From contig NZ_CP036455.1 in NCBI RefSeq assembly GCF_004323735.1, positions 5,265,101 through 5,329,100 on the forward strand: 64,000 nucleotides of DNA, in the 5' to 3' direction. Each line of letters begins with the position of its first letter. The first letter of the stretch is position 1. The stretch comes from Streptomonospora litoralis. GTDB taxonomy: Bacteria; Actinomycetota; Actinomycetes; Streptosporangiales; Streptosporangiaceae. Positions 48,529-61,619 of the stretch are shown here, piece by piece. The notes beneath the pieces were generated by a model that saw only the letters and a list, made by a program, of their open reading frames with translations, was not told the DNA's origin and ran no database searches. The translations under genes and the position numbers were made by a program.

Positions 48529-50205
48529 TCAGCCGTTCAGCGCCCGGTAGCGGCTCACCAGCGCCGCCGTGGAGGAGTCCAACCCGGGCACGTCGGCCCC
48601 CTCTGTCAGGGCGGGCTCGATGCGCTTCGCCAGCACCTTGCCCAGCTCGACGCCCCACTGGTCGAAGGAGTCGATGTTCCACACCGCGCCTTGCACGAAC
48701 ACCTTGTGCTCGTAGAGGGCGATGAGCTGGCCCAGTACCGACGGCGTGAGCTCACTCGCCAGGATGGTCGTGGTGGGGCGGTCCCCGGCGAAAGTGCGGT
48801 GGGGCACCTGTTCCGGCGGTACTCCCTCGGCCGCGGCCTCCTCGCCGGTCTTGCCGAACGCCAGCGCCTGGCCCTGGGCGAACATGTTCGCCATCAGCAG
48901 GTCGTGCTGGGCCAGCAGCTCCGGACTCATCCCCGCGACCGGGCGCGCGAACCCGATCAGGTCGGCCGGTACCAGCTTCGTCCCCTGGTGCAGCAGCTGG
49001 AAGTAGGCGTGCTGCCCGTTGGTGCCGGGCGTGCCCCACACGACGGGACCGGTGGGGTAGGTCACCGGTCGGCCCGCGCGGTCCACCGATTTGCCGTTGG
49101 ACTCCATGTCCAACTGCTGCAGGTAATCGGGAAAGCGGGCCAGGTACTGGCTGTAGGGCAGCACCGCGTGGGACTGCGCACCGTGGAAGGCGCCGTACCA
49201 GATGCCCAGCAGCCCCATCAGCATCGGCGCGTTGGCCTCGATCGGCGCGGTGCGGAAGTGGTCGTCGACCAAGCGGAAGCCCTCCAGCATCTCGCGGAAG
49301 CGCTCCGGCCCGATGGCTACCATCAGCGAGAGCCCGATCGCGGAGTCGAGGGAGTAGCGGCCGCCCACCCAGTCCCAGAACCCGAACATGTTCTCGGTGT
49401 CGATGCCGAACTCGGCGACCTTCTCGGCGTTGGTCGAGACCGCGACGAAGTGCCGGGCGACGGCCGAGACGTCGCCGTCCGTCCCCGACAGCAGCCACGC
49501 GCGCGCCGAAGTGGCGTTGGTGATGGTCTCCACCGTGGTGAATGTCTTGGACGCGACGATGAAAAGGGTGGTGGCGGGGTCCAGGTCGCGCAGCGTCTCG
49601 TGCATGTCGGCGCCGTCGACGTTGGAGACGAAGCGGACCTCGATGCCGTGCTCCCCGTCGTCCCCGGGCTCGGCGAAGGGCCGCAGCGCCTCGTAGGCCA
49701 TGGCCGGGCCCAGGTCGGAACCGCCGATCCCGATGTTCACGACGTGGGTGATGGAGCCGCCGAAGTACCCCTGCCAGGCGCCCGAGCGGACCCGCTCGGC
49801 GAAGTCGGACATCTTGTCCAGCACCTCGTGCACCTCGGGTACCACGTTCTCCCCGTCGGCCTCGACCACCGCGTCGCGCGGCGCCCTCAGTGCGGTGTGC
49901 AGCACGGCGCGGTCCTCGGTGACGTTGATCCGCTCCCCGCGGAACATGGCGTCGCGCAGCCCTTCGACGTCGGCGGCGGCGGCCAGGTCGCCCAGCAGCC
50001 GCAGCGTCTCGTCGGTCGCCAGGTGCTTGGAGTAGTCCAGGTGCAGATCGCCTACCTGCAGGGTGTACCGGCCGCCGCGCTCGGGATCGGCGGAGAACAG
50101 GTCGCGCAGATGCGTTTCCCCGAGCTTCGCGCGGTGCTCGCCCAGGGCCGCCCATTCCGGCAGCCGGTCCGGGCGCGTGCGGTCGTTCGCGGTCGTGTCG
50201 GGCAT
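48529..50205 (-). CDS. pgi: Glucose-6-phosphate isomerase
   Basis: 558 residues, ATG 50205 with GAGGAGCGAG. Full-length PGI with the SIS folds: [57 protein letters not shown] (catalytic Arg), [11 protein letters not shown] (catalytic Glu) and the C-terminal [11 protein letters not shown] with the catalytic Lys. Interconverts glucose-6-phosphate and fructose-6-phosphate. Length matches the large PGI class of Escherichia coli and actinobacteria. Confidence 0.95.
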
Positions 50206-50549
50206 CGGTCTCGCTCCTCGCATGTCCGTTCTCGCATCGGTGCGGCTTGCCGCCGGCGTCGAGCGGGCGCGGCGGCCGCGCGCCGCCGGAGCACACCCCT
50301 ACCCGGCATCATGCACGCTCGCCCGTCCCGCCGCCCGGCCGCCCTGCCGCGCCGGCACGGCCCGGCGCGGTCGGCGGCGGTCACGTCGCCTCCCGAACGC
50401 GTCGGGGTAGGGGTAGCACCGGCCGTACGGCGCGTCGGAGCCCGCCGGCGCACCGATCGTGGCATATGACGGGTAAGGGCCGGATTCGGCCGCGACGGCC
50501 CCGTCGCGTTCCGCCCGGGGCCGCATTCGACTCAAGGGAGCAGGTGCGC
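50206..50549. promoter_or_regulatory. Divergent region between pgi and the flavoprotein gene
   Basis: 344 bases with no gene. ACCCCTACCC (50295-50304) recurs as its reverse complement at 50405-50414, a distant 10-base inverted repeat that could be a pair of regulator half-sites. Nothing else seen. Confidence 0.35.
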
Positions 50550-51902
50550 ATGGACGCGCAGTACGACGCCGTCGTGATCGGCATGGGTCCCGGCGGCGAG
50601 GTCGCCGCATCGAAGCTCATCCAGAACGGGAAGCGGGTCGCCGTCGTCGAGCGTGAGCTCATCGGCGGCGAGTGCGGGTATTGGGCCTGTATCCCCTCCA
50701 AGACGCTCCTGCGCCCGCTGGAGGCCGCCGCGGAGGCCGCCGATGTGGCGGGGTTGGACGCCCCCACCCCCGACTGGGCGGGCATGCGGGCATACCGCGA
50801 CACCATGATCCGCCATCTGGACGACTCCAAGCAGGTGGAGGGCTACCGGTCCCAGGGCGTTCCGGTCTTCAAGGGCACGGCCCGCATCACCGGGCGCGAC
50901 CCGTGGGTGGTGGCCGTCGACGAGCACCGGCTGACCGCCGACGACGTGATCGTGGCGACCGGGTCGTCGGCGGCCAGGCCCCCGATCGAGGGCTTGGAGG
51001 AGGTGGAGGTCTGGACCAACCGGCAGGCGACCACGGTCGAGGAGGTTCCCGATCGCGCGGTGGTCGTCGGCGGCAGCGCCGTGGGCGTGGAGATGGGCCA
51101 GTTCCTCGCCCGCATGGGGTGCACGGTGACGCTGGTGCAGCGCGGCCCCGCCCTGATGGACCGCGAGGAGCCGCGCGTGGGCGAACTGACCGCCGAACTG
51201 CTGCGCGCCGACGGCGTGGACGTGCGCACCGGGATCGAGCCGCGCCGGGCGTACCGCCGGGGGCGCGACAGCGTGCTGGAACTGTCCGACGGTTCCGAGG
51301 CCGTCGGCGACGTCGTACTGCTGGCCACCGGGCGCGCTGCGCGCGTCGAAGACCTGGAACTCGACCGGGTCGGGGTCGAGACCGGTCCCAAAGGATTGGC
51401 CGTGGACGAGCGCTGCCAGGCGGCGCCGGGGCTGTGGGCGGTCGGCGACGTCACCGGGGTCGCACTGTTCACCCACGTCGCGAAGTACCAGGGCGGCGTC
51501 GTCGCCGGAAACATCCTCGGCCGCCCCCGCACGGCCGAGTACACCGGTGTGCCGCGCGTCGTCTTCTCCGACCCCGAGATCGCCTGTGTCGGCCTCACCG
51601 CCGACCAGGCGCGCGCCCGGGGCGTGGACGCGGTGTCCGCCGAGGTCGACCTGACCGCGGGGCTGGCCCGGCCCTGGACCTATGAGACGTCGCCCAAGGG
51701 GCACGTGGGGGTGCTGGCGGACCGGTCGCGCGGCACGCTCATCGGCGCCTGGGCCGTGGCACCCCTGGCGGGCGAGTGGATCCACACCGCCGCCCTCGCC
51801 GTGCGGGAGCAGATCGGCGTCGACCGACTGCGCGAGGGCATCTTCCAGTTCCCGACCTTCAGCGAGGGCTACACGCTGGCGGTCGACGCGCTCGACCTGT
51901 AG
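50550..51902 (+). CDS. FAD-dependent pyridine nucleotide-disulfide oxidoreductase homologue
   Basis: 450 residues, ATG 50550 with AAGGGAG. FAD motif GMGPGGEVAA, redox pair Cys42/Cys47 in GGECGYWACIPSK, NAD(P) motif VVVGGSAVGVEMGQFLA, second FAD motif LWAVGDVTG, and the C-terminal dimerisation domain. The CxxxxC spacing matches lipoamide dehydrogenase, mercuric reductase and mycothione reductase relatives, but the conserved His-x-x-x-x-Glu near the C-terminus is not in place: EWIHTAALAV occurs instead. Substrate unknown. Confidence 0.8.
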   Translation: MDAQYDAVVIGMGPGGEVAASKLIQNGKRVAVVERELIGGECGYWACIPSKTLLRPLEAAAEAADVAGLDAPTPDWAGMRAYRDTMIRHLDDSKQVEGYRSQGVPVFKGTARITGRDPWVVAVDEHRLTADDVIVATGSSAARPPIEGLEEVEVWTNRQATTVEEVPDRAVVVGGSAVGVEMGQFLARMGCTVTLVQRGPALMDREEPRVGELTAELLRADGVDVRTGIEPRRAYRRGRDSVLELSDGSEAVGDVVLLATGRAARVEDLELDRVGVETGPKGLAVDERCQAAPGLWAVGDVTGVALFTHVAKYQGGVVAGNILGRPRTAEYTGVPRVVFSDPEIACVGLTADQARARGVDAVSAEVDLTAGLARPWTYETSPKGHVGVLADRSRGTLIGAWAVAPLAGEWIHTAALAVREQIGVDRLREGIFQFPTFSEGYTLAVDALDL

Positions 51903-53538: not shown

Positions 53539-54369
53539 CTACCCGCAGCCCTCGAACTGGGGCACACTGGTATTCAGGTCCAGCCCGGTATCGCCGAACC
53601 ACTTGCGCAGCAGCCAGGCGGCGGTGCCGTCCTGGTACATGCGGGTGATGGCCCGGTTCACCGCCTCGCAGCCGGCGAGGTCCTCCTTGGCGACACCCAC
53701 CCCGTACTTCTCACTGGTGAAGGGCGCGTTGACCAGTCGGAACGACGCCGGCGCGGTGGCCAGGTAGCCCGCCAGGATGAGGTCGTCGGTCGAGACGGCG
53801 TCCACCTCGCCTTCCGCGAGCAGGTCGATGCAGTCGCTGTAGTCGGGCCGCTCGACACGCACCGCCGCCACCTCGCGCTCCTCGATCACCCGGTTGGCGG
53901 AGTTCGACCCGGCGCCCTGGCACAGCCGCTTGCCTGCCAGGTCGGCGACCCCGTCGACGGAGGTGTCTCCGGCTCGGACCAGGATGTCCTGGTGGGCCAC
54001 GTAGTAGGGACCGCCGAACGTGACGACCGTCTTGCGCAACTGGGTGATGGAGTAGGTGGCCAGCACGAGGTCCACCTTGCCGCGGACGAGCACGCGCTCA
54101 CGCTCACGCGAGGTCACCCCCACGAACTCGACGCTCTCGCGCGGCACTCCCAGTTCGTCGGCGATGTAGAGCGCCACGTCGACGTCGAAGCCCTCGTAGT
54201 CCCCGCCGTCGGTGCGCAGACCGAGCCCCGGCTGGTCGGTCTTCACCCCGATGCGCAGCGCCGTCGCGTCCGCGACGGAGGTGTGCACGCCGACGGTGTC
54301 GGTGCACGCGGCGGCCGCGGCCAGGACCGCCGCCGCAGCGGCGGCGGAGACCAGCCGGCGCAATGGCAT
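53539..54369 (-). CDS. glnH: GlnH-like amino-acid-binding lipoprotein
   Basis: 276 residues, ATG 54369. Signal peptide with lipobox-like LAAAAAC (Cys22), then a periplasmic binding protein type II fold: ALRIGVKTDQPGLG, GGDYEGFDVDVALYIADELG, RGKVDLVLATYSIT, FGGPYYVAHQDILVR and GVAKEDLAGCEAVNRAI. In mycobacteria and corynebacteria GlnH binds aspartate/glutamate outside the cell and signals through GlnX to PknG rather than importing it. No ABC permease or ATPase gene accompanies it, and glnX and pknG homologues lie in the same cluster, so sensing is the likely role. Confidence 0.8.
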   Translation of the reverse strand: MPLRRLVSAAAAAAVLAAAAACTDTVGVHTSVADATALRIGVKTDQPGLGLRTDGGDYEGFDVDVALYIADELGVPRESVEFVGVTSRERERVLVRGKVDLVLATYSITQLRKTVVTFGGPYYVAHQDILVRAGDTSVDGVADLAGKRLCQGAGSNSANRVIEEREVAAVRVERPDYSDCIDLLAEGEVDAVSTDDLILAGYLATAPASFRLVNAPFTSEKYGVGVAKEDLAGCEAVNRAITRMYQDGTAAWLLRKWFGDTGLDLNTSVPQFEGCG

Positions 54370-54416
54370 CGGCGCTCGCCTCCTCTCCTGCCGCGGCGCG
54401 GCCGCAAACCGCCGGG

Positions 54417-55910
54417 CTAGCGGTACTCCGCCAACCGCGGCCGCACGCCCAGCACCACCAGAGCCGCTACTCCCAGGCACGCGCCCAGCAGCGCCGCGTC
54501 CCAGCCGCGCAACCCGGCGCCGGCCTCGGCGACGGCGGTGTCGAAGGTGTTCTTGTGCAGCGCGGTCAGCCGGATCAGTGAACGTTCGTAGCGGTCGAAC
54601 AGGTCCTCGACGGAATCCTCCCCCGACATGTGGGCGTCGACCGCCTCCGCGATGCGGCCGTTTTCGGCCAGCTCGCGCATCCGCCGGTCGGCCTGCAGGT
54701 AGGCGCTGTAGTCCCGCAGGGTCTGCCGCTGCACCTCCTCGCGCCCCTCGACCCCGCCGGCGCGGATCTCCTCGCCCAGCAGGCCGAGCATCCGCCCCGG
54801 GTAGTCGGTGTGGTCGGGCACCGCCTCGGCGACCTCGGCGGTGTAGGATTCCAGGTCGCCCGGCACGTCGGAGTCCCGGGGGACCAGGAACAGCACCATC
54901 TGCGCGTCCTCCAGGAAGGTCTGCTCGTAGGCGCCGGCGCGGCCGGGATCCATCAGCCAACGGCTCTGGTCGGCGTTCATCCCGGTGCTGATGGCCCGGG
55001 CGCGCGAGAGCGCCAGCACCGAGTCGAGCCCCTCCTCCTTGGCCGTGCGCAGCAGGGCCGCCTGCTGCTCCAGCATCGCCATGGCGGCGAGGCCGAACAC
55101 CAGGACGCCGGCGGTGGCGGCGGCGAGCGGCACGTTGTAGCGGCGCCGGAACCGCTTGCGCAGGAACAGCTGCAGCCCGAGCAGCGCCGCGAGCAGGGCG
55201 GTGACCGAGCCCGCGACCAGCGCGACGCCCACCGACGCGGCCGAGCTGTTGCGCTGGTACGTGCTGCGCACGGTGGCTCCACTGTCGAGGGTGAGGTTGT
55301 AAGCCTTGGGCAGCAGGTCGCGGCGCATCAGCCCGCCGGCGCGCCGGTAGAGCCGGACGACCTCGTCGGACGGCTCGCCCGCGGGGCGGCCCGCCTCGTC
55401 GTTGAGCAGTCGCGCCTGGGCCACCAGGTTCTCGTAGCTGTTCATGCCGTCCATGACGGCGCGGACGTTCTGCTCCTCGGCGGGGCCGCCCTCGGCGAGC
55501 TGGGCGGCGTGCAGCAGCGCGCGGCCGGCCTCCTTTCGGCTCTGCTCGTAGCGCACCAGCGCGGCCTCGCGGCCGTCGCCCAAGGAGTGCTCGGAGCCCA
55601 TCAGCAGCACGTTGGCCATCTGGGCGTCCATGTCGCTCAGCGCGAAGTACAGGTCGGCGGTGGCCACCACTTTGGGGCCTTCGCCGCGTCCGATCACCTC
55701 CAGACCGTCGCGCGCCCGGGAGATCGCCGACCCCGTGACGCCGAACAGCACGGCGACCAGCACCAGGCACAGCGCGCTGAGCAGCCACACGCCGCCGCGT
55801 GTCCCGGGCCAGCCCGCCCATTCGGGCACGCCCATCCGCCGGCGCGCCCGCTCGGCGGCACCGGTGGCCAGCCGGTCGGCGATCTCGGGGGACTCGGTGC
55901 TGCGCTTCAC
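54417..55910 (-). CDS. glnX: GlnX-like transmembrane signal transducer
   Basis: 497 residues from GTG 55910 (GAGG seven bases upstream). Four membrane segments: about 40-61, 227-249, 261-279 and near 473-490. The two large loops between them (about 62-226 and 280-472) are helical and would face outside, as in GlnX, which links external GlnH to cytosolic PknG in mycobacteria. Sequence motifs are weakly conserved, so the call rests on topology plus neighbours (glnH downstream, pknG upstream). No kinase or methyl-acceptor domain is present. Confidence 0.7.
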   Translation of the reverse strand: MKRSTESPEIADRLATGAAERARRRMGVPEWAGWPGTRGGVWLLSALCLVLVAVLFGVTGSAISRARDGLEVIGRGEGPKVVATADLYFALSDMDAQMANVLLMGSEHSLGDGREAALVRYEQSRKEAGRALLHAAQLAEGGPAEEQNVRAVMDGMNSYENLVAQARLLNDEAGRPAGEPSDEVVRLYRRAGGLMRRDLLPKAYNLTLDSGATVRSTYQRNSSAASVGVALVAGSVTALLAALLGLQLFLRKRFRRRYNVPLAAATAGVLVFGLAAMAMLEQQAALLRTAKEEGLDSVLALSRARAISTGMNADQSRWLMDPGRAGAYEQTFLEDAQMVLFLVPRDSDVPGDLESYTAEVAEAVPDHTDYPGRMLGLLGEEIRAGGVEGREEVQRQTLRDYSAYLQADRRMRELAENGRIAEAVDAHMSGEDSVEDLFDRYERSLIRLTALHKNTFDTAVAEAGAGLRGWDAALLGACLGVAALVVLGVRPRLAEYR

Positions 55911-55919
55911 CAAGCCGCC

Positions 55920-56651
55920 TCACCCCCACTGCCGGTGCAGGGTGATGACGGTCCAGGCGCCGACGTAGATCCGGTCGGTCTCATGCAGCGCCACCTCCGT
56001 GTTGCGCGGGACCGGGTTCCCGGTCCCGTTCAGCGTCGTGCCGTTCGTGGAACCCTCGTCGACCAGTGCCCACGCGCCACCAGGCCGGGCGAGCAGAGCC
56101 GCGTGGGCGTGGGAGACCGCCGGATCCTCCGGCGGACCGGCCAGATCGATCTCCGGGTGGAGGCCGCGGCTCAGGCTGCGCCGCCCGATGCGGACGCGTG
56201 CGCGGTTGAGCGGAACGCGGCGCTGCGGAGCGTGGGACGGGAAGACGAGCGCGCCCGGGTCGAGCACGCCGCTGTCGGCCATGGCCTGGTAGTAGGCCGG
56301 GTCCGCGGCGACGATCGCCCACCAGGTGGCCTCCGCCGCACCACCGGAGGAGTCCGGCCGACCGGTGCGCGCACCGGGTGCCGCGCTTTCCGCTGCGCCC
56401 GGTCCGGCCACCGGGTGGTCGTCGGCGAGCGGCAGCGGCGACGCCTCGGTGCTAGCGGCGGCTGCGAAGTCGTGCCCGCACGCCTCGCAGAAACGGCCCG
56501 CGCGCTCGGCCGCGCAGTCGGGGCACCGCTCGTCGGGCACCTCCTCCGACATCCCGGTGCGCAGCCCGATCGGCGGTGTGGGGATGAGCAGCCCGCACAC
56601 GTCGCAGTAGGCGTCGCCCAACGAGCGGTGGCCGGCGGGACACGTCGGCAT
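55920..56651 (-). CDS. Zinc-ribbon and FHA domain protein
   Basis: 243 residues, ATG 56651 with GAGGGGAGGA. Two cysteine-knuckle ribbons at the N-terminus (CPAGH...YCDVCG, then CPDCAAERAGRFCEACG), a Pro/Ala linker, and a C-terminal FHA domain with RIGRRSLS, the VSHAHA loop and DEGSTNGTTLNG (about 150-240). FHA domains bind phosphothreonine peptides, so this protein may read the product of the PknG-like kinase. It has no GarA/OdhI-type N-terminal ETTS motif, so it is not a GarA orthologue. Confidence 0.85.
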   Translation of the reverse strand: MPTCPAGHRSLGDAYCDVCGLLIPTPPIGLRTGMSEEVPDERCPDCAAERAGRFCEACGHDFAAAASTEASPLPLADDHPVAGPGAAESAAPGARTGRPDSSGGAAEATWWAIVAADPAYYQAMADSGVLDPGALVFPSHAPQRRVPLNRARVRIGRRSLSRGLHPEIDLAGPPEDPAVSHAHAALLARPGGAWALVDEGSTNGTTLNGTGNPVPRNTEVALHETDRIYVGAWTVITLHRQWG

Positions 56652-56670
56652 GGTCGGCCTCTTCCTCCCC

Positions 56671-57990
56671 TCACACGGCCCCCGGTTCGCGGTCGCCCCC
56701 GCGCGTGGGAACGGTTCTCGTCGAGTGGGTGTCCAGCGTCATCTCGTCGGCCCGGGAGACCGCGGGGCGCAGCCGCACCGTGCCCGTGGCCGCGTCGACG
56801 ACCTCGACGACCCGGTCCAGCAGAGCCGCGGTGGCGTCGTTGCCCGAGGCGTGCGCCAGGGCCACCGCGTGCCCCAGCCGTTCGGTGGCCGAATCGTTTT
56901 CGCCTTGCCGACGCGCGTGCAGCCCCTCCTGCACGGCGCGGGCCAGCTCGGTCCGCCCGGTGTAGTGGGCGACGACCGGGTCGGTCCGCGCGGCCCGGTC
57001 GTAGTCGGCGGTCCACGCGGCCAGCACGTCGCCGCAGACGGTATGGGAGGCGTCGGTGCCCGCGGGGACCGGGCGCACCCGCCCGGCCCGCATCCGCCGG
57101 CCGGTGGCGCCGGTCGGCACCCGCAGGTGGAGGTGGTAGGCGCGGGTCTCGGCACCCCAGGACCCGGTCGGGTAGTCGCCGCTGAGCCGCCCCGAAGCGG
57201 TGCGCCGTGCGGTGAGGTCGTGCACGCTGGGGGCGACCTGGACCAGAGCGGCGACCGAGGCGCCGCGCGGCGTCCACAGGCGCAGCGCCACGTCGGCGAC
57301 GGCCTTGTCCATGGCGGCGCGTGCCATGGCGCGGAAGTCCTCGGCCAGGCGCTCCGGATCGGTGATGATCCCGACGCCGCCGAGCAGGGCTTCGGCGACG
57401 CGGCGCAGCTCGCCCACATGCCAGTCGGTGCCAACGCCGCGGCAGTCGCAGACGAACCTGCCGGCGTGCTCGGCCAGGACCGGGTCGAAGGTGTCGGGCC
57501 GCTCGTTGTTCCGGCCGTCGGTGAGCAGGATGGCGTGCTTGAGAACGCCCGGCCCCAGCGGCTCGAACAGCGCGCCGGCGGTGCGCAGCCAGGCACCCAT
57601 GCGCGTGCCGCCCGCGGCGGTGAGGCCGTCCACGGCGGCGTGCGCCTCGGCCCGGGTGCGGGGCGAGGCGGGAGCCAGGCCGGTCGTGGCCGGATAGACC
57701 ACCCTGGCGGTGTCCCGCCCCGCCACGACGGCGAACTCGACCCCGTTGCGCAGCGCGTCGACAGCGGCGCGGGCGGCCCGCTTGGCCGCGCTCAGCTTCT
57801 CGCCGTGCATCGAACCCGACGTGTCGACGACGACCACTTCCGCCGCCGGCGGGACCGGCCCCGAATCGGCGGTCGGATGCGCGGTGACCTGCACGATCGC
57901 ATGCACCTCGGTCCCGCCGGGAGCGAGCCACGGATTCTGGTCCACGCGCACGGCGAAGTCCGGCGCCCGTCCCGGGGCCCGCGCGTTCAT
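56671..57990 (-). CDS. von Willebrand factor A domain protein of the PknG cluster
   Basis: 439 residues, ATG 57990 overlapping the PP2C stop as ATGA. vWA domain at about 50-230 with an intact MIDAS: DTSGSMHG (Asp56, Ser58, Ser60), the Thr in GGTRMG and Asp in LLTDGRNN. The C-terminal half has a beta-rich then helical portion. Such vWA proteins mediate metal-dependent protein contacts, often with AAA ATPases or phospho-signalling complexes. Coupled to the phosphatase by overlap; probable scaffold of the kinase/phosphatase unit (inference). Confidence 0.8.
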   Translation of the reverse strand: MNARAPGRAPDFAVRVDQNPWLAPGGTEVHAIVQVTAHPTADSGPVPPAAEVVVVDTSGSMHGEKLSAAKRAARAAVDALRNGVEFAVVAGRDTARVVYPATTGLAPASPRTRAEAHAAVDGLTAAGGTRMGAWLRTAGALFEPLGPGVLKHAILLTDGRNNERPDTFDPVLAEHAGRFVCDCRGVGTDWHVGELRRVAEALLGGVGIITDPERLAEDFRAMARAAMDKAVADVALRLWTPRGASVAALVQVAPSVHDLTARRTASGRLSGDYPTGSWGAETRAYHLHLRVPTGATGRRMRAGRVRPVPAGTDASHTVCGDVLAAWTADYDRAARTDPVVAHYTGRTELARAVQEGLHARRQGENDSATERLGHAVALAHASGNDATAALLDRVVEVVDAATGTVRLRPAVSRADEMTLDTHSTRTVPTRGGDREPGAV

Positions 57991-58964
57991 GGCGCCACCC
58001 CCTGCGCCGTGCCGCCGGGCACGGTGACCACGACCACGGTCACGTTGTCGTGGCCTCCGCGCTCCAGCGCGAACCGGACGCAGGACCGCGCTGCGGCGAG
58101 CGGGTCGGGGCCGCCGCCCCGGACCAGCGCGGCCAACTCGACCGGGTCGGGCACGAGGTTCCACAGCCCGTCGCTGCACAGCACCAGGCTGCCCGCGCCG
58201 CCCGGGTCGAAGGTGGCCACCCGCCCGGCGGTGCCGCCGTAGTCGGCGCCCAGCCAGGCGGTCAGCGCATGGGCGCGCGGAGAGCGGGCGGCCTCTTCGG
58301 GGCTGAGCAGCGACATCGCGACCATGGCGGCACTCCAGGAGTCGTCGCTGGTGAGCTGCGCGGAGGGTGCTGATCGGGCGCTCGCGGAGACCCAGTAGGC
58401 GCGGCTGTCCCCGACCCAGCCCACCCCCAGCGGCCCCCTCGGCGGCACCGCCGCCGCGAGGAAGGTGCACGCCGGGGCCGCGGCCGCCGAGGGGGCGAGC
58501 GCCGCGACGTCGTGGTCCGCCCGCCGCACCGCCGCGCCGAGGGCGGCCGCGGTGTCGGCACCGCCCTCCAGCCGCTCGGTGAGCGCGGCGCAGCCGGACT
58601 GCGCGGCGGTGCCGGCGGCCGCCTCCGGACGGGGGGAAGTGGACACGCCGTCGCAGACGACGGCGGCGACGGTCGCCGCGGGGCCGGCCGCCGCATCCGC
58701 AGCCGCGCCCACCACCCGCACCGCCATCGCGTCCTCGTTGTACTCGTGGCGCAGGCCCCGGTCGCTCACGCCTGCGGCGCGGCCCACTCGGAGTTCGCTG
58801 TGATCCGCGGGGGCGCGGCGGCGCATCCCGTCGGCGGGCCCGGTGGCGCCCGCGCCGCCCGCGGGGTGCGCGCCGTGCCCGGTGGAACGCAGGCCGTGGC
58901 CGCAGTGCTCGCAGAAGAAGTCCTCCGCGGCTACCGCGTCACCGCACATCGGGCAGGTCAGCAC
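57987..58964 (-). CDS. PP2C-type serine/threonine phosphatase with zinc ribbon
   Basis: 325 residues from GTG 58964 (GGAGGCGAGG upstream). N-terminal ribbon CPMCG...FFCEHCGHG (about 4-24), then the PP2C domain with HEYNEDAMAV, VVCDGVS, GWVGDSRAYW, LVLCSDGLWN and GGHDNVTVVVV, covering the metal-binding aspartates. Removes phosphate from Ser/Thr; the kinase encoded directly upstream on the transcript (59169-61619) is the natural counterpart. Its ribbon resembles those of the kinase and the FHA protein. Confidence 0.85.
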   Translation of the reverse strand: MLTCPMCGDAVAAEDFFCEHCGHGLRSTGHGAHPAGGAGATGPADGMRRRAPADHSELRVGRAAGVSDRGLRHEYNEDAMAVRVVGAAADAAAGPAATVAAVVCDGVSTSPRPEAAAGTAAQSGCAALTERLEGGADTAAALGAAVRRADHDVAALAPSAAAAPACTFLAAAVPPRGPLGVGWVGDSRAYWVSASARSAPSAQLTSDDSWSAAMVAMSLLSPEEAARSPRAHALTAWLGADYGGTAGRVATFDPGGAGSLVLCSDGLWNLVPDPVELAALVRGGGPDPLAAARSCVRFALERGGHDNVTVVVVTVPGGTAQGVAP

Positions 58965-59168
58965 GCTGCGCCTCGCCTCCCCTCTGCCGCGTCGCCGCGG
59001 CCGCTGAACGCGCGCGGCCCCGGCGGACGAGCGCGCCGACGCGGCGCCCGCCACCGCCGCGCAGCGGTTCGCCGCCGCACCGCATCCCGTCCCGCTCCCG
59101 GTTAGAGGCCATACCCGCGCAAAGCGGTGCCGCTAACGCGGGCGGGGGAACCGGGGCGGGCCGCGCGC

Positions 59169-61619
59169 TCACAGCAGGGTCCTCGGACGCACCGCGTTGG
59201 CGCGGTCGACGAGTTCGCGGCGGCGCGCGCTGTCGGTGGTGATCCGAGCCCGCTCGCGGTAGCTGCGTTCCAGGTTGGTGCGCAGCCCCACCTCGGTCAG
59301 CGGCCCGCCGAGCAGCCTCGTGTGCCGGTTCTTCGGGCCGTAACCGGCCAGCACCCAGTCCAGGGCGGTGCGCAGCACGCGCGCGTTGAGCCGGTTGGCG
59401 GCTTCGCCGCGCAGTCCGAGCCGGCGCAGACGGGCGACGGCGTCCAGGAACACGGCCTCGGACAGGGTGCCGGGATCGCGGTCGGTCACCAGCACGCTCA
59501 CCGCCGCCATCTGCGCGGCGATGTAGACGCTGGACAGCTCGGGCACCATGTCCAGCACCCGCACCGCCCCGGCCGGGTCGCCGTGGGCAAGGCGGATCCG
59601 GGCCAACCCGAACCCGGCGCTGAGGTAAGAGCGGTCGGTCAGCCACACGGTGCGGTAGAGCCGCTCGGCGTCGGCGAGGCCGCCGGTCAGCTCGCACGCG
59701 GCGGCCAGACCCAGCTTGGGCGCCGCCTCGCCGGGCAGGTGGTCGAAAAGCTCCTCGAACCGGTCGCGGGCGTCGGGGCACTCGTGCGCGCCCAGCGCCA
59801 TCACCGCCCAGTACCAGAACGGCCGCCAGTCGCCGGGGGCCCTGGCGCCGAACTCCTGCAGCTGGTGGGCGGCCTCCTCGCGGCGGCCGACGCCGATCAG
59901 GGCGCGCGCCAGCATCAGCCGGGTCTCGGGGGTGGGGCCGGCGTCGCCCTCCAGGGTGGCGACCAGCTCCTCGTCGGGTACGGCGGCGAGCCCGAAGAGC
60001 TGGGCCGCCGCCGTATCGCCGGGGTCGACCAGCGGGAACGGCAGCGCGGCGGCCGCTCGGCCGGGGTCGGGCGGACCCAGCAGCCGGTCGGTCTCGTCGA
60101 TGACCCGGATGAGGTTGCCCGAGGTGAACAGGGGGTGTTCGGAGCCGAACAGGCCGGAGGGTGCCGGGTGGGGGCGGCCGTGCAGGTCGGAGAGGACCTC
60201 GCGCAGCACACCGGTGAGCTGCTCGGCCATCTCGGCGGCGTCCTGGAATCGGAGCTGCGGTTCCGGCTGCAGGGCGCGGCGCAGCAGCCGGTCGTAGGAG
60301 GGGTGGCGCCGCAGCACCGGCACCTGGTCGGCGTCGGGCAGGTCGTGCTCGTAGGTCCGGGCGAAGTCGAAGCGGAAGCTGAGCACGGCCAGGCAGCGCG
60401 CCACCGAGTACAGATCGGAGCTGACCGAGGGGCCGTGGTGGCGCAGCTCGCGCTCGGGGACCCGGTAGCCCGCGGTGGTGTAGACGGGGGCGACCATGTC
60501 GTCGATGCGGCGCACCGCGCCCAGGTCGATGAGCTTGATCTGCTCCTCGCTCTGGATGACGTTGTCGGGTTTGAAGTCGCAGTAGAGCAGGCCCTTGCTG
60601 TGCAGGTGCCCCAGCGCCCGCAGGGCCTCCAGCCCGAAGGCGATGACCCGGTCGACGGGCAGCCCGTCGGCGCCGGGGTCGCGTTCGCGGTGGTCCACGA
60701 GCAGGTCGCGCAGCGACTTGCCGCCCACGTACTCCATGACGATGTGGCCCGCCGGGACCCCGGTGCGCGGATCGGGGTGCTGCACGAAGTTGTAGATCTT
60801 GACGACGTTGGGGTGTTCCACCTCGGCCAGCACGCCGCGCTCGGCGGCGGCGGTCTTGTGCGCCTCGGCGTCGCCGACGTTGAGCAGGCCCTTGAGCACC
60901 ACCCACCGGTCGTTGACGTTGTGGTCGCGGGCGAGGTAGATCCAGCCGAGCCCGCCGTGTGCCAGGCAGCCCAGCACCTCGTACTGGCCGGCGACCAGGT
61001 CGCCGGGGGCGAGCTTGGGTGTGAAGGAGAACTCGGTGCGGCAGGAGCGGCAGTAGCCCTCGGTGCGGCCGGGGCGGCCGTCGAAGGAGCGGCCCACGCT
61101 GTCGCCGCAGTGGCCGCACACCCGGTTCTTCTCGGCGACGACGGGGTCGCTCAGCACCGCGCTGGCGGGGTCGCGGTAGGGCACCGGCGGCACCTGCACC
61201 AGGCCCAGACCGAGCAGGCCCCGCGAGGAGGGGACGCCGGTGCGGCTGGGGGCGGCGCCGGAGGAGCCGCGGCCGGAGTGCGCGCGGGGACCCGACGAGG
61301 TGGACAGGCGGGGCGCGCGGAGACTGGGTGAGCGCCCCGAGGACGACGCGGTGCCGTCGAACGCGCTGTCGGCGCCGCTTCGGCCGTCCTCGTCGGAGGA
61401 CGCGCCGGAGTCCGGCTCGGGAGCCGCGGCACGGCCGCCGCCTCTGGACGGGGCGGGCGAACGCGGCGCGGGAGCGGGGGCGGTGGGCAGGTTCTCCGGG
61501 GCGTGCGCGGCCCGCGGCGCGGGGACGATCCCTTCGGATACCACTGGGGCCATGCCGCACTGGTCGCAGTAGCCGTCGTCGATCACGCCGGTGCAGTCGG
61601 TGTCGGTGCACTCGGTCAT
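59169..61619 (-). CDS. pknG: PknG-like serine/threonine protein kinase
   Basis: 816 residues from ATG 61619 (GGAGAG upstream). Order: N-terminal cysteine ribbon (1-22), Ser/Gly/Pro-rich linker to 140, rubredoxin-like domain with Cys168, Cys171, Cys190 and Cys193, kinase domain about 212-480 and TPR-like helical repeats from about 560. Kinase residues: Gly-rich loop LAHGGLGWIYLA, Lys243, catalytic Asp348 in YCDFKPDN and metal Asp365 in IDLG. PknG responds to glutamate/aspartate via GlnX/GlnH and controls 2-oxoglutarate dehydrogenase through GarA/OdhI in mycobacteria and corynebacteria. All domains present; soluble. Confidence 0.9.
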   Translation of the reverse strand: MTECTDTDCTGVIDDGYCDQCGMAPVVSEGIVPAPRAAHAPENLPTAPAPAPRSPAPSRGGGRAAAPEPDSGASSDEDGRSGADSAFDGTASSSGRSPSLRAPRLSTSSGPRAHSGRGSSGAAPSRTGVPSSRGLLGLGLVQVPPVPYRDPASAVLSDPVVAEKNRVCGHCGDSVGRSFDGRPGRTEGYCRSCRTEFSFTPKLAPGDLVAGQYEVLGCLAHGGLGWIYLARDHNVNDRWVVLKGLLNVGDAEAHKTAAAERGVLAEVEHPNVVKIYNFVQHPDPRTGVPAGHIVMEYVGGKSLRDLLVDHRERDPGADGLPVDRVIAFGLEALRALGHLHSKGLLYCDFKPDNVIQSEEQIKLIDLGAVRRIDDMVAPVYTTAGYRVPERELRHHGPSVSSDLYSVARCLAVLSFRFDFARTYEHDLPDADQVPVLRRHPSYDRLLRRALQPEPQLRFQDAAEMAEQLTGVLREVLSDLHGRPHPAPSGLFGSEHPLFTSGNLIRVIDETDRLLGPPDPGRAAAALPFPLVDPGDTAAAQLFGLAAVPDEELVATLEGDAGPTPETRLMLARALIGVGRREEAAHQLQEFGARAPGDWRPFWYWAVMALGAHECPDARDRFEELFDHLPGEAAPKLGLAAACELTGGLADAERLYRTVWLTDRSYLSAGFGLARIRLAHGDPAGAVRVLDMVPELSSVYIAAQMAAVSVLVTDRDPGTLSEAVFLDAVARLRRLGLRGEAANRLNARVLRTALDWVLAGYGPKNRHTRLLGGPLTEVGLRTNLERSYRERARITTDSARRRELVDRANAVRPRTLL

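What the first reader, a model, noticed from the sequence alone, without database searches (positions are those of the whole stretch)
53539..61619. Expanded GlnX/GlnH/PknG glutamate-sensing cluster with phosphatase, FHA reader and vWA protein
Seen: six co-directional genes with overlaps or short gaps encode PknG-like kinase, PP2C phosphatase, vWA, FHA, GlnX-like and GlnH-like proteins. Known: in mycobacteria and corynebacteria GlnH, GlnX and PknG alone sense aspartate/glutamate and steer 2-oxoglutarate dehydrogenase. Inferred: here writer (kinase), eraser (PP2C) and reader (FHA) of phosphothreonine are encoded with the sensor, a self-contained circuit that would extend the known module. The FHA protein is not GarA-like.
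Basis: partly seen in the sequence, partly recalled or inferred. Interest (0 to 1): 0.7.

Follow-up and report, generated by a model that had tools for sequence, protein, structure and literature searches.

The report
Six-gene PknG signalling module, zinc-ribbon tagged
Many actinobacteria keep the amino-acid-sensing kinase PknG, known from a three-gene operon, in a larger six-gene unit with a phosphatase, a phosphate reader and a vWA protein, and kinase, phosphatase and reader carry small zinc-binding tags.

Summary
In detail: six minus-strand genes (61619-53539) encode PknG, PP2C, vWA, FHA, GlnX and GlnH; only the pknG-PP2C gap is not short.

The cluster is widespread. Of 39 PknG genomes in a class sample, 26 have PP2C, vWA and FHA beside pknG; the 9 with none are all family f4. 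The block pknG-pp2c-vwa-fha keeps its order in 60 of 62 loci with all three, with glnX-glnH before or after it. Relatives of this vWA occurred in 25 of 148 genomes, all with PknG. Parsimony mildly favours the three-gene operon being a reduction.

New: PknG of extended loci has an N-terminal C4 zinc ribbon (69 of 76, against 3 of 38 without the block). PP2C, FHA and the separately encoded GarA have ribbons too; vWA does not. Five genomes hold both PknG types. Allowing for relatedness, the ribbon association is not significant.

'Self-contained' is not supported: GarA and its presumed targets lie elsewhere. Likely mechanism: a GlnH/GlnX-driven PknG relay to GarA with its own reset, reader and scaffold. 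New variant of a known kind.

The parts
59169..61619 (-). pknG: N-terminal C4 zinc ribbon (residues 4-22), roughly 100-residue disordered linker, rubredoxin, Hanks kinase, TPR
   Evidence: PknG_rubred 2e-23, Pkinase 2e-24, PknG_TPR 1.6e-87; K243, D348, N353, D365 invariant in 28 aligned PknGs (these rows were picked for having the ribbon, so its invariance there is by construction); model mean pLDDT 82.6, residues 1-20 about 80, 28-131 under 50
57987..58964 (-). PP2C-type phosphatase with N-terminal zinc ribbon (alternative start 59054)
   Evidence: ribbon CPMCGDAVAAEDFFCEHCG; best solved relative PstP, E 1e-13
56671..57990 (-). vWA protein (VWA_3 + VWA_3_C), MIDAS intact, no zinc ribbon
   Evidence: solved relative 4fx5, E 5e-106; MIDAS D, S, S, T, D each at least 95% conserved in 78 aligned vWAs
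55920..56651 (-). FHA protein with two N-terminal zinc ribbons (residues 4-19 and 43-58)
   Evidence: FHA 1.1e-10; in 38 aligned sequences C16, C19, C43, C46, C55 and FHA residues G156, S180, H183, N203 invariant, R157, G204, T205 at least 90%, C58 not (rows were picked by the first C-P-x-G-H motif, so C4 and H8 are by construction); model pLDDT 85.7
54417..55910 (-). GlnX-family membrane transducer (four hydrophobic segments by eye)
   Evidence: NCBIfam NF058618, 275 bits over cut-off 250
53539..54369 (-). GlnH-like solute-binding lipoprotein (lipobox by eye)
   Evidence: SBP_bac_3 8e-27; five of seven polar ligand contacts of solved GlnH 6h1u conserved

Best explanation
This is the extended form of the GlnH-GlnX-PknG amino-acid sensing relay. 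Inferred mechanism: the lipoprotein GlnH binds an acidic amino acid outside the cell; GlnX passes the signal through the membrane to the TPR domain of PknG; PknG phosphorylates its own disordered N-terminal linker and then the separately encoded GarA at the ETTS motif, releasing the brake on 2-oxoglutarate dehydrogenase and glutamate enzymes. The three extra proteins form a control block around the kinase: PP2C resets the phosphothreonines locally; the FHA protein docks on phosphorylated PknG as competitor, adaptor or second substrate; the vWA protein holds the set together, perhaps by binding the zinc ribbons of PknG, PP2C and FHA (and of GarA in many extended lineages). Shown here: gene content, conservation, block order, conserved catalytic and binding residues, the ribbon motifs, and GarA plus candidate target enzymes in the genome. 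Inferred: every interaction and its direction. The three-gene operon is read as a reduced form.
For: All of PP2C, vWA, FHA (PVF) beside pknG in 26 of 39 PknG genomes of a class sample (one of the 26, G071, by a weak 31-bit vWA match); 4 with one of the three (one cut by a contig end); 9, all f4, with none. Order pknG-pp2c-vwa-fha in 60 of 62 loci with all three, glnX-glnH before or after. vWA (E at most 1e-40) in 25 of 148 genomes, all among those 39; none in the other 109; Fisher 1e-18, not corrected for relatedness. PknG ribbon in 69 of 76 loci with any of PVF, 3 of 38 with none. In five of five genomes holding both forms the three-gene copy has no ribbon and the extended copy has one. PP2C ribbon in 81 of 83 hits; FHA N-terminal ribbon in 63 of 75. 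Conserved MIDAS, FHA and kinase residues. GlnH keeps the counterparts of R147, T162, S164, R169, D250 of 6h1u (residue roles from passages of PMC6069109). GarA with ETTS and ribbon, OdhA-type enzyme, large NAD-GDH. GlnX, TPR and linker roles from passages of PMC8546545 and PMC9769921.
Against: No interaction or activity was tested. Phylogenetically independent pairs, ribbon against PVF: about 2.4 of 7 agree, 0 oppose, not significant. Parts are dispensable: vWA missing from 4 Nocardiopsis loci, PP2C and/or FHA from L102, L132, L151. GarA lacks the ribbon in Nocardia, Phytohabitans and G027, which have the block, and has it in genomes where no PknG was found: G016, G087, G141, G028, G110 (not searched for the TPR part). 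GlnH differs from 6h1u at W232 (Tyr) and K161 (Ala). ETTS is not universal in GarA of extended genomes (for example DTTS, DVTS). A three-gene PknG (L114) and two others without the block (L079, L136) carry the ribbon.
Confidence: 0.55

Rival explanations
1. A distinct paralogous relay: the ribboned PknG with PP2C, vWA and FHA serves another output (the FHA protein or an unknown client), while GarA is handled by other kinases such as PknB.
For: Four Nocardia genomes and an Amycolatopsis MAG keep a three-gene and an extended copy in one genome, so the two are not simply interchangeable. The FHA protein is strongly conserved. GarA is present in 69 of 69 genomes examined, including some in which no PknG was found. 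PMC12321487 passages name PknB as well as PknG for GarA.
Against: 19 of the 26 genomes with the full block show one PknG locus by the rubredoxin search (one of these, G073, has a second TPR match), and all those included also encode GarA; glnX and glnH accompany 68 of 76 extended loci.
Confidence: 0.25
2. A TerY-P-like kinase/PP2C/vWA triad (metal- or stress-responsive, or defence-linked) that has captured PknG and the GlnX-GlnH sensor.
For: The TerY-P triad is vWA + PP2C + kinase with zinc ribbon (PMC11090510 passages); actinobacterial kinase-ribbon, PP2C and vWA sets are described beside GTPase systems (PMC7159879 passages). PP2C-vWA-FHA also occurs with a TPR-less kinase and without GlnX/GlnH (L084-L086).
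Against: PADLOC gave only kinase-domain hits for PknG and none for the other five (whether it holds TerY-P models was not checked). Of nine neighbouring frames scanned, five had families (DUF6221, response regulator, histidine kinase, PGI, pyridine nucleotide oxidoreductase) and four none. The ribbon is N-terminal, not C-terminal; FHA is an extra part.
Confidence: 0.12
3. Neighbours without functional connection: a stable gene order inherited by descent.
For: Association with the ribbon is not significant after allowing for relatedness; single members are lost in some lineages.
Against: Block order kept across orders while glnX-glnH switch sides; vWA not found without PknG in 148 genomes.
Confidence: 0.08

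Closest known systems
GlnH-GlnX-PknG-GarA/OdhI relay of mycobacteria and corynebacteria
   Same: Homologous sensor lipoprotein, membrane transducer and TPR kinase; GarA with phosphorylation motif and candidate target enzymes in the genome
   Different: Three extra genes in the cluster; zinc ribbon on PknG and (here) on GarA; two common gene orders
TerY-P triad (vWA, PP2C, kinase with zinc ribbon)
   Same: Same three protein kinds, zinc ribbon on the kinase
   Different: Kinase is PknG with rubredoxin and TPR; ribbon N-terminal; FHA protein added; beside an amino-acid sensor; no PADLOC match for vWA or PP2C
Threonine phosphorylation pathway of type VI secretion (PpkA, PppA, Fha)
   Same: Kinase, PP2C and FHA encoded together below membrane-located regulators (PMC3953482 passages); PpkA itself has a C-terminal vWA domain (PMC1262709 passages)
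   Different: No secretion genes recognised here; separate vWA protein; zinc ribbons; solute-binding sensor
Actinobacterial kinase-ribbon/PP2C/vWA sets beside GAP1-N2 GTPase systems (PMC7159879 passages)
   Same: Kinase often with zinc ribbon, PP2C, standalone vWA in actinobacteria
   Different: Here no GTPase system was recognised; FHA, GlnX and GlnH are present

Membership tests
GlnH-GlnX-PknG relay | PknG architecture: rubredoxin, kinase, TPR | tested here: met
   PF16919, PF00069, PF16918 over cut-off
GlnH-GlnX-PknG relay | GlnX-family transducer | tested here: met
   NF058618 over cut-off; strict equivalog NF041460 not reached
GlnH-GlnX-PknG relay | GlnH with acidic-amino-acid contacts | tested here: inconclusive
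   5 of 7 contacts conserved, W232 to Tyr, K161 to Ala (contacts from PMC6069109 passages)
GlnH-GlnX-PknG relay | GarA/OdhI with ETTS in the genome | tested here: met
   C1:2656926-2657465
GlnH-GlnX-PknG relay | PknG phosphorylates GarA in response to Asp/Glu | not testable with these tools
   Needs experiment
GarA/OdhI (for the operon FHA protein) | ETTS motif before the FHA domain, OdhI-type sequence | tested here: not met
   No ETTS in the sequence; OdhI model 22.5 bits against cut-off 200; solved OdhI E 4e-4
TerY-P triad | vWA + PP2C + kinase encoded together | tested here: met
TerY-P triad | Kinase with C-terminal zinc ribbon or OB fold | tested here: not met
   Ribbon N-terminal, TPR C-terminal
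TerY-P triad | TerY-type vWA in a Ter or defence context | tested here: inconclusive
   PADLOC: no vWA or PP2C match; no TerY sequence was compared directly
Type VI threonine phosphorylation pathway | Encoded in a type VI secretion cluster | tested here: not met
   None recognised among the nine neighbouring frames scanned; the rest of the window was not scanned

The most novel reading that the evidence does not exclude
A zinc-ribbon address code: PknG, PP2C, FHA and GarA carry related N-terminal ribbons, and the MIDAS-bearing vWA protein, the one cytosolic member without a ribbon, is the hub that binds them, so that writer, eraser, reader and substrate are held in one complex under the amino-acid sensor. 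Loss of the hub in the ancestors of Mycobacteriales and Pseudonocardiaceae freed the kinase, whose ribbon then decayed (the three-gene PknG of Kibdelosporangium, L114, still has one).
Probability: 0.25. Interest if true: 0.8.

Novelty: new variant of a known kind. Interest (0 to 1): 0.6.

Why it matters
PknG signalling has been worked out in bacteria that, on this evidence, may hold a stripped-down version. In Streptomyces and relatives the kinase comes with a phosphatase, a reader and a vWA protein, which makes the open question of how PknG signals are switched off and kept specific testable in non-pathogenic, antibiotic-producing laboratory strains. Engineering GarA already raised erythromycin yield about twofold (PMC12321487 passages), so a native control block for the same pathway has practical interest.

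Tried and rejected
Tried and dropped. (1) S. coelicolor SCO2110 as the PknG of this locus: the only paper found calls it PkaF, and I recall it as a PASTA kinase. (2) GarA ribbon as a strict partner of the block: fails in Nocardia, Phytohabitans and G027, and occurs where no PknG was found. (3) The ribbon-block association as independent evidence: raw Fisher for vWA and ribbon 1e-24, half-ribbons counted as ribbons, but independent pairs not significant. (4) Defence system: only kinase-domain matches in PADLOC. (5) Two of the 41 class-sample PknG_rubred matches (G028, G110) were set aside: neither locus held a PknG match (L087, L088), and G110's match lies inside GarA at the ribbon.

Corrections made on the way. 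The first ribbon scans used poor anchors and missed or misplaced ribbons; one search replaces them. In one search I recoded three extended rows (L058, L095, L097) by a relaxed pattern but left L114, a three-gene row that also matches; applies the relaxed pattern to all 114 rows and is the one to use. L083 has a ribbon-like stretch by eye but is counted as without. Rows dropped: of 129 PknG hits of at least 450 bits in 134 loci, 15 lying within 4 kb of a locus end (listed). In one search four of the 50 GarA loci (L179, L181, L219, L223) gave no readable frame and are not counted.

Limits. The class sample is drawn evenly from a larger group. The profile HMMs were built from the loci they then scored. 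Gene order and PVF counts use a neighbourhood of 7.5-8 kb. f4 is unnamed; I call it Mycobacteriales-like because its PknGs group with those of Nocardia. The root used is a long branch. For PP2C or FHA taken singly the presence at the base wins by 8 against 10 and 9 against 11 steps, and loses by one step if losses cost double. The AlphaFold models carry no zinc and their cysteine geometry was not measured. The conservation figure of PMC6069109 is not held and may show some of these neighbours; two subscription papers on Streptomyces kinases and PPM phosphatases, seen only as references, may do so too.
Full report
What is there. Six genes run on the minus strand from 61619 to 53539: pknG, PP2C, vWA, FHA, glnX, glnH. 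Pfam and NCBIfam support the names; GlnX has no Pfam match but passes NCBIfam NF058618. Upstream lie about 550 bp and then a response regulator and a histidine kinase on the same strand; downstream a DUF6221 gene follows glnH on the same strand. PP2C and vWA overlap by ATGA; the other gaps are 9-47 bp except pknG-PP2C, 114 or 204 bp by the start chosen. The consensus scan found no promoter-like site and one terminator-like site on the other strand, no more than chance.

Parts look functional. PknG keeps K243, D348, N353 and D365 in all 28 aligned relatives and matches solved PknG at 9e-152. PP2C has, by eye, NED, DG, GDSR, SDG and DN motifs and matches PstP at 1e-13. The MIDAS residues of vWA are each at least 95% conserved in 78 aligned vWAs; a relative is solved, 4fx5, E 5e-106. 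The FHA protein keeps G156, S180, H183 and N203 in all 38 aligned rows and R157 in at least 90%; GR, SxxH and NG are the phosphothreonine-binding motifs (PMC1262709 passages). AlphaFold gives it two small N-terminal parts and an FHA domain with block means of 90 or more (mean 85.7); the 50 Foldseek matches shown align 119-157 columns of FHA proteins. GlnH keeps the counterparts of R147, T162, S164, R169 and D250 of solved GlnH, with W232 to Tyr and K161 to Ala (roles from PMC6069109 passages), so an acidic ligand is likely but not settled.

The known output exists elsewhere in the genome. GarA with ETTS lies at C1:2656926-2657465, an OdhA-type enzyme at C1:992231, a large NAD-dependent glutamate dehydrogenase at C1:1083503, and a second PP2C beside two FHA genes at C1 near 87-90 kb. 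That GarA inhibits the first and acts on glutamate enzymes is from the papers cited. The operon FHA protein is not GarA: no ETTS, OdhI model 22.5 bits against a cut-off of 200.

Is it conserved? Of the 39 class-sample genomes with PknG, 26 have PP2C, vWA and FHA beside it (G071 by a weak vWA match of 31 bits), 4 have one of the three (one cut by a contig end), 9 have none, and those 9 are all family f4. Among named loci with enough flank, Pseudonocardiaceae have none in 23 of 24; all three are found in 11 of 11 Streptomycetaceae, 12 of 15 Thermomonosporaceae, 2 of 6 Nocardiopsidaceae (the other 4 lack vWA) and 3 of 4 Nocardiaceae loci. On 114 usable PknG rows, the order pknG-pp2c-vwa-fha is kept in 60 of the 62 with all three; glnX-glnH precede the block in 36 and follow it in 21. 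Both glnX and glnH accompany 68 of 76 extended rows and 32 of 38 others. The window's vWA finds relatives at E 1e-40 or better in 25 of 148 genomes; all 25 are among the 39 with PknG, none among the other 109 (read; Fisher 1e-18, not corrected for relatedness). The block also occurs without GlnX-GlnH beside a TPR-less kinase in three loci (L084-L086).

The ribbon. In extended loci PknG starts with a C4 ribbon, in the window CTDTDCTGVIDDGYCDQCG; in most rows a methionine lies within 12 residues before it. One relaxed pattern applied to all 114 rows gives 69 with, 4 half-ribbon and 3 without among the 76 rows having any of PP2C, vWA, FHA; and 3 with, 35 without among the 38 having none. The three with a ribbon but no block are L079, L136 and L114; L114 (Kibdelosporangium) is a three-gene PknG with a ribbon at its very start. 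PP2C carries a ribbon in 81 of 83 hits; in the 60 residues before the vWA MIDAS the pattern occurs in 3 of 78. FHA has the N-terminal one in 63 of 75. The PP2C ribbon matches that of this genome's GarA at E 4e-7 in a small set of 331 frames. In the PknG model residues 1-20 score about 80 and 28-131 under 50: a knob on a tether, as I read it.

Relatedness. On a PknG core tree of 114 rows (quick method) presence of the block needs 5 changes. Rooted on the Streptomyces-like kinase-vWA group, equal-cost parsimony prefers the block present at the base of the rest (5 against 7 steps; a tie if losses cost double). Seven independent pairs differ in the ribbon; the block differs the same way in about 2.4 and the opposite way in 0, so relatedness alone could explain the association. 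The best natural control lies inside genomes: four Nocardia and one Amycolatopsis MAG each hold a three-gene copy without ribbon and an extended copy with ribbon, 5 of 5 (in the MAG the extended copy shows no glnH). One of them, Nocardia alder85J, has a further ribboned PknG with glnX only. GarA's ribbon follows lineage rather than the block.

How it likely works. From work on the three-gene system (passages of PMC6069109, PMC8546545 and PMC9769921) GlnH senses Asp/Glu, GlnX is proposed to carry the signal to the TPR domain, and PknG autophosphorylates its N-terminal tail, docks the FHA substrate there and phosphorylates it. I infer that here PP2C gives local reset, the FHA protein reads the same tail as competitor, adaptor or extra substrate, and vWA organises the set, perhaps by binding ribbons. 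The type VI pathway of PpkA, PppA and Fha (PMC3953482 passages) shows that kinase, PP2C and FHA encoded together can form one circuit. Nothing here demonstrates an interaction.

Known or new. My ten paper searches, several of them pairing PknG or GlnX with FHA, PP2C, von Willebrand, Streptomyces or zinc ribbon, turned up no account of the six-gene block in their listings, nor in the passages I read of eleven papers. I read no paper whole; subscription journals are largely missing and figures are not held. Kinase-ribbon, PP2C and vWA sets are known in other settings. I therefore call it a new variant of a known kind.

Noticed in passing
   Followed up: partly
L075, L077, L078 (family f18, Streptomyces-like): A second, distant PknG-like kinase with N-terminal ribbon paired with a vWA gene only.
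   Followed up: partly
L093, L095, L096, L097 (Nocardiopsis): vWA gene missing from an otherwise kept block, PP2C directly followed by FHA.
   Followed up: partly
L235-L239 (Nocardia sp. alder85J): Five PknG-like loci in one genome, including copies without glnX-glnH nearby.
   Followed up: partly
L114 (Kibdelosporangium aridum), PknG N-terminus: A three-gene PknG that carries a C4 ribbon, a possible intermediate.
   Followed up: partly
window 50421-51902 (+) and 48529-50223 (-): A pyridine nucleotide-disulphide oxidoreductase (dihydrolipoyl dehydrogenase-like by eye) and phosphoglucose isomerase lie near the cluster; a link to it was not tested.
   Followed up: no
window 53367-53071 (-): DUF6221 gene about 170 bp behind glnH on the same strand; its conservation beside the cluster was not surveyed.
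   Followed up: no
G110:C5:22812-22877 (L088): The Pfam PknG_rubred profile rings weakly on the zinc ribbon of GarA, which can be mistaken for PknG.
   Followed up: yes
L214, L215 (Phytohabitans GarA): GarA without ribbon and without ETTS (DVTSTLNL) in genomes that have the six-gene block.
   Followed up: partly
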